A stretch of 64,000 nucleotides of DNA from Tetracentron sinense. Taxonomy: Eukaryota; Streptophyta; Magnoliopsida; Trochodendrales; Trochodendraceae. Of this stretch, positions 47,376-53,786 are shown piece by piece. Numbering within the stretch: the first letter of the stretch is position 1; each line of letters begins with the position of its first letter. A model generated the notes under the pieces. That model did no database searches, had not been told where the DNA came from, and saw nothing but the letters and a program-made list of their open reading frames with translations. Location of the stretch: positions 28,119,760-28,183,759 of the forward strand of contig CM026557.1 of the NCBI GenBank assembly GCA_015143295.1. The letters are read 5' to 3'. The position numbers and the translations under genes are program-made.

Positions 47376-47516
47376 TCAACAGTGGTCGAGGTATGGCCAC
47401 ACCTCCAAGTCCCCATCCTCCAGAGACTGCCATGGGATAGGTGGCTCCCTCTCCTCTACATACTCCTCCTCGACCCAAGGCTCGGGGTCGAGGACATCCA
47501 CAGTACCTGCCGACAT
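47376..47516 (-). CDS. Conserved acidic LTR micro-ORF, copy 8 (C 3' LTR)
   Basis: A 46-residue ORF with ATG at 47516 and TGA at 47376-47378. It starts MSAGTVDVLDPEPWVEEEYV, continues EEREPPIPWQ and ends VWPYLDHC. It is the same length as B's copy with no indels, and many of the differences are synonymous. An in-frame ATG upstream lies in the hairpin. Unknown product; the best candidate, with B's copy, for a functional peptide. Confidence 0.5.
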   Translation of the reverse strand: MSAGTVDVLDPEPWVEEEYVEEREPPIPWQSLEDGDLEVWPYLDHC

Positions 47517-47526
47517 AAAAGTACGT

Positions 47527-47545
47527 CTGAGCATGGAATACTCAG
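47527..47545 (-). other. Conserved LTR hairpin (C)
   Basis: CTGAGTATTCCATGCTCAG on the minus strand, 10 bases upstream of the MSAG start. Confidence 0.6.
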
Positions 47546-47796
47546 CGAGTACAAACTACTAGCTAACCATAACAATAGCGAAAGCATAACAACAGTGAGC
47601 AATACAAGATATTAATTTAAAGCAATAGTGAAAGCATAAGATACATAGCCATATCTTGACATGCGTGTATGAATGCAAAAACCTCGGTAAAACTCATGTC
47701 TCGGAAACCTTTTTTTCGTGTCTCGGTCAAATCATGTATGTGTGTCATGTCTTGTCTTGTATTTCATGTCTTGATTTGTTCTTGACTTGTATACTT

Positions 47797-48072
47797 GTGA
47801 GCCAGAGGCTAGCACCCTTCCTGAGGCTACCAACCTCCTTGTCATGTTCTTGTTCCATTTCTCTTGTGAGCGAGAGGCTAGCACCCTTCCTTGGGCTACC
47901 AACCTCCTTGTCATGTTCTTGTTCCATTTCTCTTGTGAGCTAGAGGCTAGCACCCTTCCTTGGGCTACCAACCTCCTTGTCATGTTCTTGTTCCATTTCT
48001 CTTGTGAGCCAGAGGTTAGCACCCTTCCTTGGGCTACCAACCTCCTTGTCATGTTCTTGTTTTGTTGTTGAT
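47797..48072 (-). repeat. 69-bp tandem array in C's 3' LTR
   Basis: Four units at 47797, 47866, 47935 and 48004, each with 'gtgagccagaggctagcacc' and 'ccttgtcatgttcttgttcc'. Open frames across it (up to 140 codons on the minus strand) reflect the repeat length being a multiple of three. Confidence 0.93.
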
Positions 48073-49035
48073 TCATCATGTATAAATACAATCTTGGAAA
48101 ACCCAGTTTCATGCATGCATGTGTACTCGTGTGCGTGCCAATAGTGACAATCATGGGGACACGTGTAACAAGAGGGATATCGCATCATATTTCAATTCAT
48201 AGTATAACATGTAAGCATTTAGGTGATCAACATGGCATTTGGTCAAGTCATCATTTACAAGAATAATTACATAAAGCTTACATCCATTTCCCTTATCAAT
48301 TTCATTTATTCTTGGTTTAGGCATATTATCAAACATCCGGTGTGCAACATTTTAGTAGTTTTATTTCCCCTTTTAGCGCATAAATTTCCAACACAACATC
48401 CAAGTATGTTCATTATTCATAGAGTGCCCTTCCACCATTTTCCATACCCACATTTCACCACGTCCAACGGCATCCAATCGCCTCTACATCCACCATTCAT
48501 ACATACAACCCCACATTCACATTTATCTTGTTTAGGTTTAGGAGGAATAACACATTTCAAGTAAGGGAAGATACAAGACCAACATCATAATGTCAAAGGG
48601 GAAAACTAGATTATTGCTAAAGAAAGTTAGTAGAGTGTACTAACCTAGAATCAAGGCTTGAATCCTTGGTAGGGACCTTGATTGAAGCTCCAACTTGAAA
48701 GATGAAGCCTTTGCTTGAAAGAAGCTTGAGTTGGGGAAGAAATCCCTTTCAAAAACATGAGTGAGGGCTGCCCTAGCTTTGAGAATGCACCCCACCCGAG
48801 CTTGAGTTGAAATCTTGAAGAAAACGTGTTTGGGGACGATCTAGGGTCTTCACCCCTTTGATTTCTTCTCCAAAAGCAACCTAGGTTTAGGGAACCCTTT
48901 TCTCTTCTCTCTTATCTCCCAAATCTCTCTAAGTATAGTGAATGATGCCCTAAGGCTCGGGCAAGCCTTAAGGAGAAAGGGTTTAACCCCCAAAAGACGA
49001 AAAAGCCCTTAATGAAAATTCTGAAAAACACGAAG

Positions 49036-49222
49036 ACCGAGCGATCGGTGGTTATGACCGATCGATCGGTTGCCTACCGAGCGATCGGTATTTATGACCG
49101 ATCGACCGGTCAAAAACTCACTCTCTGGAAAATTTCCCCATACAAAATTTCTGACTGTGCGATAGATACCGATCGATCGGTTATGGACCGATCGATCGCT
49201 GACTGGACCGAGCGATCGGTGC
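49036..49222 (-). promoter_or_regulatory. Palindrome cluster in U3 of C's 3' LTR
   Basis: About eight ACCGATCGATCGGT-type sites arranged as in F (13292-13478), in two groups around 'ttttgtatggggaaatttt'. Confidence 0.5.
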
Positions 49223-49432
49223 TCTGTATGTCTGGACTGTTTTGACCATATCTTTTGACTCGCTCGTCGGATTTCGACGATTCAACTTGCGTTGGATCCG
49301 TCTTTCGAAAACGAACATTTCTGACGTTTCGGAATTTCCGATTTCTCCCTTATTTATTAATTGGACTACAAAAACGGCCAATTAGCTATGAAGGTGCTAT
49401 TCATTAAGAATGAAAAAGTCCGGGGTGCTACA

Positions 49433-49446
49433 TTCTCCCCCCCTTA
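49433..49446 (-). other. Polypurine tract of element C
   Basis: Minus-strand 'taagggggggagaa' directly before the LTR start, after 'aatttcggggatgaaatt'. Confidence 0.8.
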
Positions 49447-51648: not shown

Positions 51649-51860
51649 TGTAGCACCCCGGACTTTTTCATCCTTAATGAATAGCACTTTCGTAGCTAAT
51701 TGGCCGTTTTTGTAGTCTAATTAATAAATAAGGGAGAAATCGGAAATTCCGAAATGTCAAAAATGTGCGTTTTCGAAAGACGGATCCAACGCAAGTTGAA
51801 TCGTCGAAATCCGACGAGCGAGTCAAAAGATATGGTCAAAACAGTCCAGACATACAGAGC

Positions 51861-52048
51861 ACCGATCGCTCGGTCCAGTCAGCGATCGATCGGTCCATAA
51901 CCGATCGATCGGTAGCGCTATCGCACGGTCAGAATTTTTGTATGGGGAAATTTTCCAGAGAGTGAGTTTTTGACCGATCAATCGGTCATAAACACCGATC
52001 GCTCGGTAGGCAACCGATCGATCGGTCATAACCACCGATCGCTCGGTC
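51861..52048 (+). promoter_or_regulatory. Palindrome cluster in U3 of B's 5' LTR
   Basis: About eight sites: ACCGATCGATCGGT (perfect palindrome), ACCGATCGCTCGGT and ACCGATCAATCGGT. The 3' LTR repeats it at 59391-59578 with one substitution (CTCTCGGT). Confidence 0.5.
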
Positions 52049-53039
52049 TTCGGGTTTTTGCAGAAATTTCAGTAAAGGCGTTTTCGTCTTTTGGGTGTTA
52101 AACCCTTACCCATAAGGGTTTGCTCGACCCTTTGAGGCCTCACTTACAACATTTGAGGGATTTTGAGAGATAGAGAGAGAAGAGGAGAAAGCTCTAACCT
52201 AGGGTTTGGTTTTGAGAAGGAAATCAAAGGGGGTTTAAGAACCATAGCTCACCCCAACTCGAGTTGCTTCAAAAATCGAGGCCCAAGCTCGTGTGTGAAC
52301 CATTCTCCAAGCTAGGGCAGCAACCCAAGCACGTTTTTGAAAGGGGTTTCTTCCCCAACTCAAGTCTCCTTCAAGCAAGGGCTTCCTCCTTCCAAATAGA
52401 GCTTTTATTTCAAGGTTTCTTCAAGATCAAGCCTTGATCTAAGGTTAGTACACCCTACTAACTTACCCTAGCAATAAATCTAGGTTTTTCCTTATGAAAT
52501 ATGATTCTTGTTAGTATGTTTTATTCTTTGCAAAATGAGTCATCTATAATAAATATAAACAAGATAAAGAAAGGGTAGGGATGCTTGGATGGAGGTTGGA
52601 TACGGCGATTGGATGCCGAATGTGTGATGTATGATGTGTGGGTTGTGGATTGGAAAATGGAGGATGGGCATAGTACAAATAACAAACTTACCATTGTGTG
52701 ATTGAATGGAAAATATGCATTTAAAAGAAGGAGATAAACTACTAAGGAATAATGTATGAAAGTGTTTGACAAAATACCTAAACTATGAATAAATGATCTC
52801 AATGAAGAATATAGGAATGGGTTTTATGCATGTGTTCTTATAAATGATAAATTGATCAAATGTTATGCAAACTACTTATGTTACCTATATTCATATCATG
52901 AATTGAATTATAATGTCATATTTTGGTTATTTCCATTATCATGATTGTCACTATGGACACGTACACGAGCACGCATGATAGCATGAACCGTGATTTCAAG
53001 AGCATGTGCATATAATAAACAACAAGAAAATATTGCATG

Positions 53040-53357
53040 TCAAGGAGGTTGGTAGCCCAGGGAGGATTCGGGCACTAACCTCTGGCTCACAAGGAAACCA
53101 TGCATTTCATAACAAGGAGGTTGGTAGCCCAGGGACATTCGGGTGCTAGCCTCTGGCTCACAAGTGCATTGCATAACAAGGAGGTTGGTAGCCCAGGGAC
53201 ATTCGGGTGCTAGCCTCTGGCTCACAAGTGCATTGCATAACAAGGAGGTTGGTAGCCCAGGGACATTCGGGTGCTAGCCTCTGGCTCACAAGTGCATTGC
53301 ATATCAAGGAGGTTGGCAGCCCAGGGAGATTCGGGTGCTAGCCTCTGGCTCACAAGT
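53040..53357 (+). repeat. 64-bp tandem array in B's 5' LTR
   Basis: About five units at 64-bp spacing (53113, 53177, 53241, 53305), each with 'caaggaggttggtagcccag' and 'gctagcctctggctcacaag'. Related in sequence to the arrays of C and F. Confidence 0.93.
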
Positions 53358-53616
53358 TACAAGATGGAGGTTTACAAGATGATGATCATGCATTCATGCA
53401 TGCACGCATACATGATTTCTACGAGGCATACCGGGACATGACAAGGGTTTTCAAGCATGAGTTTTATCAGCATTTTCGCATTCATGTACGCACGTCAGGA
53501 TGCTTGTATTGTGTCATGCCCTATACTGTTTCTTTGTGAGGTTTCTATTACTGCTTGTATGATATTACTATTATGTGTTTTTATTATTGTTATGGTCTGC
53601 TAGTAGCTTGTACTCG

Positions 53617-53635
53617 CTGAGTATTCCATGCTTAG
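53617..53635 (+). other. Conserved LTR hairpin (B)
   Basis: CTGAGTATTCCATGCTTAG; one C-to-T change leaves a G-T pair where F has G-C, so the stem is kept as RNA. Confidence 0.55.
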
Positions 53636-53645
53636 CCGTACTTTC

Positions 53646-53786
53646 ATGTCGGCAGGTACTGAGGGAGCCCTCGACCCGAAGCCTTGGGTCGAGGAAGAGT
53701 ATACAGAGGAGAGAGAGTCGGCTATCCCATTACAGTCTCAGGCGGACCGAGACCTCGATGCGTGGCCATACCTTGACTACTGTTGA
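53646..53786 (+). CDS. Conserved acidic LTR micro-ORF, copy 9 (B 5' LTR)
   Basis: A 46-residue ORF with ATG at 53646 and TGA at 53784-53786. It starts MSAGTEGALDPKPWVEEEYT, continues EERESAIPLQ and ends AWPYLDYC. Same length as C's copy, with no indels. B's own 3' LTR lacks it because of a deletion, so this is B's only copy. The frame is open upstream through the hairpin (EYSMLSRTF). Confidence 0.5.
   Translation: MSAGTEGALDPKPWVEEEYTEERESAIPLQSQADRDLDAWPYLDYC

What the first reader, a model, noticed from the sequence alone, without database searches (positions are those of the whole stretch)
47376..53786. A conserved acidic micro-ORF inside the LTRs of divergent chromoviruses
Nine LTR copies belonging to eight LTRs or families (3913, 11023, 11524-11679, 18684-18803, 23131, 31658-31795, 41237-41365, 47376-47516, 53646-53786) hold a 31-51 codon frame with Ala-Gly near the start, a PW(I/V)EE(E/D)Y core, an acidic middle and, in several, an ending such as WPYLDYC, WPYLDHC, WPHGDGY or GPDLDFC. 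Seen: length changes are multiples of three, and core codons differ mostly at third positions (cct/cca/ccg; gag/gaa; tat/tac). Four copies (F, K, C, B) start with ATG as MSAG. LTRs are normally considered non-coding; known exceptions are LTR-encoded accessory proteins in animal retroviruses. Inference: a small accessory peptide, a translated leader ORF, or an exon joined by splicing at the conserved 'GCAG|GT'.
Basis: partly seen in the sequence, partly recalled or inferred. Interest (0 to 1): 0.88.

Follow-up and report, generated by a model that had tools for sequence, protein, structure and literature searches.

The report
Hidden Gag tail exon in LTRs
The terminal repeats of many related jumping genes in this plant genome carry a short, selectively maintained stretch of protein code that looks like a splice-in tail for the elements' coat protein, in DNA usually thought not to code.

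Summary
In detail: all nine copies have the frame. The pattern "GCAG|GT + PW(V/I)EE(E/D)Y" has 18,664 genome matches, reversed control 0. Of 30 loci picked only by the upstream hairpin and GCAGGT, 28 carry the frame. It behaves as protein code: median dN/dS 0.23 over 11 pairs; in-frame similarity exceeds all 1000 column shuffles; indels are multiples of three in 7 of 9 cases inside, 5 of 42 in flanks.

It is not a free-standing micro-ORF. Only 13 of 30 have the ATG, and frame constraint begins at GCAG|GT, a 3' splice site. The LTR has an AUG-poor first exon with an AAG|GT donor. Gag has a 3' splice site just before its ATG and, at its end, a phase-1 donor (VVQ|G) shared with a ~140-nt gag-pol intron (4,722 matches). 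The LTR exon has the same phase.

Best reading: the gag donor is spliced either to pol (Gag-Pol) or to the 3' LTR exon, giving Gag an acidic tail. Exon: well supported. Gag partner: inferred; no RNA data, no spliced genomic copies found.

The parts
53656..53786 (+). LTR tail exon (copy I): starts at the GT after GTCGGCAG, codes ...GTEGALDPKPWVEEEYTEERESAIPLQSQADRDLDAWPYLDYC, stop TGA
53616..53636 (+). conserved hairpin just upstream of the 3' splice site (copy I)
51649..54069 (+). 5' LTR of element I
52138..52443 (+). AUG-free leader exon 1 in LTR I, ending at donor TCTAAG|GTTAGTAC; start placed 30 nt after a TATA-like position (inferred)
   Evidence: (0 ATG, 5.2 expected)
54388..55632 (+). 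gag exon of element I: 3' splice site TTCTTAG|GAGAAATC, ATG at 54396, ends at donor GTGCAAG|GTACGC (phase 1)
55633..55768 (+). gag-pol intron of element I (136 nt)
55769..59087 (+). pol region of element I (protease, RT, RNase H, integrase, weak chromodomain match; in two overlapping ORFs)
47376..47506 (-). LTR tail exon, copy H
47524..47546 (-). hairpin stretch upstream of the 3' splice site, copy H
48637..48654 (-). exon-1 donor GATTCTAG|GTTAGTAC in LTR H
11524..11669 (-). LTR tail exon, copy C (LTR 11239-13687)
12972..12989 (-). exon-1 donor TTCCAAG|GTTAGTAC in LTR C
18684..18793 (-). LTR tail exon, copy D
19840..19859 (-). exon-1 donor TTCAAG|GTCGGTAC in LTR D
23135..23226 (+). LTR tail exon, copy E (decayed, premature TAG)
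31658..31791 (-). LTR tail exon, copy F (3' LTR of element F)
32508..32525 (-). exon-1 donor TGAAAG|GTAGATAC in LTR F; TATA box CCTATAAAA within 32727-32741
36722..36745 (-). gag donor GTGCAAG|GTACGC of element F (phase 1); pol acceptor not found there
41237..41361 (-). LTR tail exon, copy G
3917..4032 (+). LTR tail exon in the truncated 5' LTR of element AB
4315..5527 (+). gag exon of element AB: 3' splice site TTCTCAG|GATTGTAAAC ATG, to donor TGTGCAGG|GTACGT (phase 1); frame has a stop (decayed)
5528..5665 (+). gag-pol intron of element AB (138 nt)
9973..9992 (+). exon-1 donor TCCTAAG|GTCGATAT in the 3' LTR of AB; TATA box GGCTATAAATAGG at 9783-9795
11027..11145 (+). LTR tail exon in the 3' LTR of element AB, downstream of its gag donor
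1511..1675 (+). gag donor, intron (140 nt) and pol acceptor of the element at the window start
62248..62407 (-). [not shown]

Best explanation
The frame is a coding exon in the LTR, opened by the 3' splice site GCAG|GT and closed by its own stop codon. In the 3' LTR it serves as an alternative last exon of gag. The primary transcript starts in the 5' LTR and has a leader exon almost free of AUG that ends at AAG|GT. This is spliced to a 3' site 8-10 nt before the gag ATG, so gag has the first AUG. At the end of gag (SDDVVQ|G, phase 1) the donor has two phase-compatible partners. Joined to the pol acceptor ~140 nt on, it gives Gag-Pol. Joined across all of pol to the 3' LTR acceptor, it gives Gag with a roughly 25-50 residue acidic tail ((F)DICxPxPWVEEEY...DLDxWPY). 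Choosing between them would set Gag against Gag-Pol while unspliced RNA serves as genome. Shown from sequence: the coding constraint, its start at the AG, the splice-site consensus sequences and the matching phases. Inferred: that splicing happens, that gag is the partner, and what the tail does.
For: Coding: median dN/dS 0.23 in 11 pairs; codon-position differences 106/82/184 in 14 pairs (third-position excess p 2e-10, pairs not independent); in-frame similarity 5923 against 1085 +/- 680, 0 of 1000 shuffles reach it; indels multiple of 3 in 7 of 9 inside, 5 of 42 outside. Starts at the AG: hairpin-to-AG distance 22/23/24/25 in 31 loci; ATG in 13 of 30. Leader exon: 2 ATG against 26.6 expected in 6 window LTRs; 19 against 144 before the donor and 456 against 162 after it in 55 of 80 loci. 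gag 3' site in 11 of 13 stretches. gag donor in 10 of 12 stretches, pol acceptor in 9 of those 10, all phase 1; 4,722 genome matches, reversed control 0; the 100 listed introns have residues 34/39/27 modulo 3. Tail exon and gag donor lie in the same element in 5 of 7 5'-LTR loci whose gag end was fetched. Among the gag and pol pieces compared (3 gag, 4 protease-RT, 3 integrase), only two conserved phase-1 donors appeared, the VVQ one (4.6 in both pieces that reach it) and one at gag codon ~172 (3.1-4.3). The last 300 nt of four pol ends have no phase-1 donor with a positive score.
Against: No RNA, ribosome or peptide data. The gag-LTR exon junction pattern has 0 genome matches, and none of 20 (of 107) 'AAG|GT' variants that I read shows leader or gag sequence before the exon; spliced RNA would lack the primer-binding site, so this is weak evidence. 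Phase agreement alone has a 1 in 3 chance. The implied intron is about 5 kb. A gag relative in the protein database (P0001) reads past VVQ into intron-like sequence, so unspliced RNA or pol-only splicing may be the rule. The gag end fetched for L042 and L064 shows no donor motif (fixed offsets, may have missed it). The young element I has lost the exon from its 3' LTR. The hairpin sampling pattern fixed 5 stem positions, so hairpin conservation there is partly built in; the donor and acceptor searches also presuppose their motifs.
Confidence: 0.6

Rival explanations
1. The exon is coding and spliced, but its partner is not the VVQ donor: an earlier gag donor (codon ~172, AGCAAG|GT, also phase 1) or an exon not recognised here, giving a short Gag N-terminus or an accessory protein.
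For: AGCAAG|GTAATA or GTTTGA is at the same codon in three gag pieces of the window, phase 1, scores 3.1-4.3.
Against: The bases after GT vary there (GTAATA, GTTTGA), and it has no second acceptor nearby that I recognised, while the VVQ donor is paired with the pol acceptor and in the 100 listed copies is mostly followed by ACGC, ATGC, AAGC, ACAC or ACGT.
Confidence: 0.15
2. A free-standing micropeptide or upstream ORF in the 5' leader of unspliced RNA, starting at MSAG or a near-cognate codon.
For: 13 of 30 hairpin-anchored copies have ATG two codons before the AG; two database ORFs (P0059, P0060) begin with Met near that point, as an ATG-started prediction must.
Against: 17 of 30 lack the ATG; 6 of 6 indels in the 60 bases before the AG are single bases; the intron upstream holds 1.8-2.8 times the expected ATGs in six LTRs.
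Confidence: 0.1
3. An exonic splicing enhancer: GAG/GAA-rich DNA just after a 3' splice site, so the acidic peptide is a by-product.
For: The core is purine-rich (GARGARGAN) and follows a 3' splice site.
Against: Third positions vary most, in-frame amino-acid similarity is far above column shuffles, Trp and Tyr are invariant in 14 chosen tails, and indels keep frame.
Confidence: 0.07
4. The exon replaces the C terminus of Gag-Pol or belongs to another product that uses a donor inside pol.
For: LTR-encoded polyprotein ends are known in the CRM clade (PMC3605345, passage); one conserved donor in the RT piece, but in phase 0.
Against: No phase-1 donor with a positive score in the last 300 nt of four pol ends and none conserved in the pol pieces compared.
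Confidence: 0.05

Closest known systems
Drosophila copia and barley BARE1 gag-only spliced RNA (Ty1/copia)
   Same: Splicing of the element's RNA yields Gag without Pol; in copia about 2.9 kb of pol is removed (PMC3735527, passages).
   Different: BARE1's 104-nt intron creates a frame-shift stop; here the donor appears to have two in-phase acceptors, and the distal exon is in the LTR, is conserved as protein and adds a tail.
Arabidopsis EVADE shGAG (Ty1/copia)
   Same: Alternative splicing at the gag end separates Gag from Gag-Pol (PMC12786077, passages; the primary paper was not held).
   Different: EVADE removes the protease domain and stops soon after; no LTR exon is described in what I read.
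Ogre (Ty3/gypsy, Tat lineage)
   Same: An intron between polyprotein ORFs is spliced from part of the transcripts (PMC6317226 section 13).
   Different: Ogre's lies between protease and RT, and Ogre is not a chromovirus; here it lies between gag and protease.
CRM-clade chromoviruses
   Same: Chromovirus protein code extends into the 3' LTR (PMC3605345, passage).
   Different: There it is the chromodomain end of the polyprotein; here a separate exon behind a 3' splice site, with its own stop. I did not compare the sequences.
Bagy-2 env RNA and CRR spliced RNAs (plant gypsy)
   Same: Subgenomic RNAs by splicing in plant Ty3/gypsy elements (mentioned in PMC3735527, passage).
   Different: No LTR-coded alternative Gag end is mentioned there.
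LTR-encoded accessory proteins of animal retroviruses (nef, MMTV sag)
   Same: Protein code inside the 3' LTR reached by splicing (recalled, no call).
   Different: Those are separate proteins with their own starts (recalled); here a start-less tail exon.

Membership tests
Chromovirus (Ty3/gypsy) | chromodomain after the integrase | tested here: inconclusive
   PF00385 at the end of the integrase piece of element I, E 1.2e-4 but 22.4 bits against a curated cut-off of 25.1
Chromovirus (Ty3/gypsy) | domain order gag, protease, RT, RNase H, integrase | tested here: met
   pieces of element I in order; gag, protease, RT, RNase H and H2C2 above cut-off, rve core below it (24.9 of 32.6 bits)
Chromovirus (Ty3/gypsy) | one uninterrupted gag-pol ORF, as in most plant groups (PMC6317226 section 13) | tested here: not met
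   gag donor in 10 of 12 stretches, pol acceptor in 9 of those 10, at the gag-protease border
Chromovirus (Ty3/gypsy) | primer-binding site for tRNA-Met | not tested
   TGGTATCAGA or a variant follows the LTR in 11 loci; complementarity to the tRNA not computed
gag-only spliced RNA (copia/BARE1/EVADE type) | splice site at the gag end that separates Gag from Gag-Pol | tested here: met
   consensus and phase only
gag-only spliced RNA (copia/BARE1/EVADE type) | gag-only RNA observed in the plant | not testable with these tools
   no RNA data for this genome
free-standing conserved micro-ORF | conserved start codon in frame | tested here: not met
   13 of 30 have ATG; distances upstream not kept modulo 3
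free-standing conserved micro-ORF | purifying selection on the amino-acid sequence | tested here: met
CRM-type LTR-coded polyprotein end | pol frame open into the 3' LTR | tested here: not met
   pol ends with a stop before the LTR in I, H, B and F

The most novel reading that the evidence does not exclude
A large, diverse group of plant chromoviruses keeps an alternative last coding exon of gag inside the LTR. One phase-1 donor at the gag end is spliced either ~140 nt to pol or ~5 kb, across all of pol, to the 3' LTR. The same LTR provides promoter, AUG-free leader exon, intron, tail exon, stop and poly(A) site. The tail marks Gag made without Pol and may give it a separate job, such as RNA export or particle assembly.
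Probability: 0.5. Interest if true: 0.88.

Novelty: new variant of a known kind. Interest (0 to 1): 0.78.

Why it matters
How single-ORF plant Ty3/gypsy elements make more Gag than Pol is, as far as I know, open; the 2025 review says plant LTR elements generally lack introns, with Ogre and EVADE as notable exceptions (PMC12786077, passages). A splice choice with an LTR-coded tail would be a new answer in a lineage with thousands of copies in this genome, and it is testable with ordinary RNA data. It would also mean that annotation that treats LTRs as non-coding misses conserved protein code, and that LTR copies scatter thousands of 3' splice sites with coding exons through the genome, available to host genes.

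Tried and rejected
Exon 1 as source of the reading frame: rejected. It has no ATG in 4 of 6 window LTRs (one each in H and B), and copies I and B have an in-phase TAA immediately before the junction. A donor at the end of pol: no phase-1 site with a positive score in the last 300 nt of I, H, B, F. Standalone peptide: see rivals. A second hairpin downstream of the stop: visible in some families (GGTGGG..TCCACC), not general, dropped. Pfam on five peptides: one match, far below cut-off. Single-peptide protein search: nothing. Tail profile (A2): two short ORFs from unnamed ENA contigs of 753 and 1261 nt, E 2e-6 and 6e-6; their species and whether they are genomic or transcript are not given. Viral contigs: 0 matches for two DNA patterns, none confirmed for the RT piece. 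Spliced copies in the genome: gag-LTR exon junction 0; 107 AAG|GT variants, 20 read, all look like altered acceptors. Not obtained: counts for the spliced gag-pol junction and for the exon1-gag junction, never answered.

Literature: the searches listed no title or abstract about an LTR-coded Gag exon; the library lacks most subscription journals, so this does not show absence.
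Full report
What was checked. The window lies in a 1.16-Gb assembly (G000:C7:28119760-28183759). The nine reported places all hold the frame. 3913 and 11023 lie in what appear to be the two LTRs of one element, here called AB; 23131 is decayed.

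Is it more than chance? The pattern GCAGGT, 18-48 bases, then CCNTGGRTNGARGARGANTAY has 18,664 matches in the genome and 0 when read backwards. That pattern assumes the code, so I used another that does not: the small hairpin upstream plus GCAGGT (22,234 matches, reversed control 1). Of its first 30 loci, all on contig C1, 28 carry the frame with the Trp core, one stops before it (L067) and one is mis-anchored (L087). From I took 50 loci (the first 30 listed and 20 that I chose for variety): 48 keep frame between the AG and the core, L019 and L039 do not. Of the first 100 matches listed, also on C1, 98 have a length that is a multiple of three.

Is it protein code? I used 36 exons from the window and the hairpin sample (E, L067 and L087 dropped), reduced to 18 representatives under 88% identity. 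In the 14 pairs with at least 62% identity and 22 codons, differences at codon positions 1/2/3 are 106/82/184. dN/dS has median 0.23 (range 0.12-0.59) in the 11 pairs where dS is not saturated. With 16 of the 18 representatives and 23 gap-free codon columns, the in-frame similarity score is 5923, against 1085 +/- 680 for 1000 column shuffles, none reaching it; frames +1 and +2 score 1298 and -35 with 10 and 30 stops. In 11 chosen pairs, indels are multiples of three in 7 of 9 cases inside, in 5 of 36 in the 150 bases after the stop and in 0 of 6 in the 60 bases before the AG (Fisher p 2e-4 for inside against flanks). The two exceptions inside involve L063/L073 and L075/L077. Pairs and copies are not independent, so p-values are indicative.

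Where does the code begin? At the AG. The distance from the hairpin to GCAGGT is 22, 23, 24 or 25 bases in the 31 loci where the motif used was found. An ATG two codons before the AG is present in 13 of 30 hairpin-anchored loci. So the code is an exon starting with the last two bases of a Gly codon (phase 1). The hairpin changes its closing pairs together (GAGUAU/AUGCUC or AUACUC, GAGUAC/GUACUC, GAGUAA/UUACUC); a stem of six or more is found in 84 of 89 copies but also in 44% of shuffles, and the sampling pattern fixed part of it.

What surrounds it? Two LTRs have a clear TATA box (CCTATAAAA in F, GGCTATAAATAGG in B). In six LTRs, 172-306 bases nearly free of ATG (2 against 26.6 expected; start set by the TATA or its equivalent position) end in AAG|GTTAGTA, AAG|GTCGGTA, AAG|GTAGATA, AAG|GTCGATA (TAG|GTTAGTA in H). 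Then come 0.7-1.3 kb with 1.8-2.8 times the expected ATGs, often with tandem repeats, then hairpin and AG. In 55 of 80 loci with such a donor in range, the 150 bases before it hold 19 ATG (144 expected) and the 150 after it 456 (162 expected). Where several donors fitted I took the one with the clearest contrast, which favours this result, and some places are in both samples. This reads as a leader exon and an intron in the LTR. It cannot supply the frame: no ATG in four of six, and a TAA just before the junction in I and B.

What could supply it? Gag is preceded by a 3' splice site 8-10 bases before its ATG in 11 of 13 stretches examined (L042 and L028 gave none). Joined to the leader exon, this makes gag the first or nearly the first AUG. 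At its end, after SDDVVQ, gag has a donor, mostly CAAG|GTACGC, in phase 1 in 10 of 12 stretches (L093, L094 none), and in 9 of those 10 an acceptor follows after 135-144 bases, again phase 1, at the start of the protease (GxLLVNECLARVLIDTGSTHSF and variants). Genome-wide the intron pattern has 4,722 matches, reversed control 0. In the 100 listed, lengths run from 124 to 149 (the pattern allowed about 120-150) and spread over all residues modulo 3 (34/39/27), as expected for an intron. In one search, comparing 3 gag, 4 protease-RT and 3 integrase pieces, the conserved phase-1 donors were this one and a somewhat weaker one at gag codon ~172; one conserved donor in the RT piece is in phase 0. The last 300 bases of four pol ends have no phase-1 donor with a positive score.

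How it probably works. The gag donor can be joined to the pol acceptor, giving Gag-Pol, or to the LTR exon, giving ...SDDVVQG followed by an acidic tail and a stop, with pol removed and the presumed poly(A) site of the 3' LTR behind. Elements AB (gag donor 5528, tail exon 11027) and F (gag donor near 36732, tail exon 31791, minus strand) have the pieces in that order. In five of seven 5'-LTR loci whose gag end I could fetch, the same element has the exon and the donor. Unspliced RNA would remain as genome. In 14 chosen tails Ala-Gly, Trp and Tyr are invariant, and many end like DLDxWPY... Its function is unknown: tagging Pol-free Gag, or a Gag form with another duty, are guesses.

Against. There is no RNA. 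Spliced copies were not found, although such RNA would lack the primer-binding site. The phase match alone is a 1-in-3 coincidence. A related gag ORF in the protein database runs past VVQ into what looks like intron (P0001). Element I has lost the exon from its own 3' LTR. The chromodomain match of element I is below Pfam's cut-off.

Known relatives. Splicing that yields Gag without Pol is known in copia, BARE1 and EVADE (passages of PMC3735527 and PMC12786077). An intron between polyprotein parts is known in Ogre; most plant groups have one ORF (PMC6317226 section 13). Protein code reaching into the 3' LTR is known in the CRM clade (PMC3605345, passage). No listing in the searches pointed to an LTR-coded alternative Gag end. 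A profile of 14 tails found two short ORFs in other public contigs, so the exon may not be confined to this assembly.

Verdict. The frame is real, selected protein code and very probably an exon. That it is Gag's alternative tail is the best-supported and directly testable reading.

Noticed in passing
window 60802-60809: The 3' LTR of element I (59179-61046, 99.6% identical to the 5' LTR over 1631 bases) lacks about 0.5 kb that includes hairpin and tail exon.
   Followed up: partly
window 20149-21396: LTR D holds a long array of ~25-bp units (CACTATTCACGCCACCACGAGTTGG-like) before its leader exon.
   Followed up: no
window 22204-22953; 53037-53407; 11833-12456; 47794-48130: Four LTRs (E, I, C, H) have 64-75-bp tandem repeats in the presumed LTR intron, upstream of the hairpin.
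   Followed up: no
window 51858-52050 and similar places in H, C, B: The 5' part of these LTRs is full of the palindrome-like motif ACCGATCGATCGGT and variants; F has ACCGGTCGACCG-like ones.
   Followed up: no
window 18042-18054 with 17466-17642: A second copy of the B-type TATA box and an LTR fragment similar to 9131-9305.
   Followed up: no
window near 11290-11330, 47140-47180, 53995-54020: Just inside the LTR end an ACAGGATGGTTTGGCAG|GT-like sequence recurs and could be a further donor; role not tested.
   Followed up: partly
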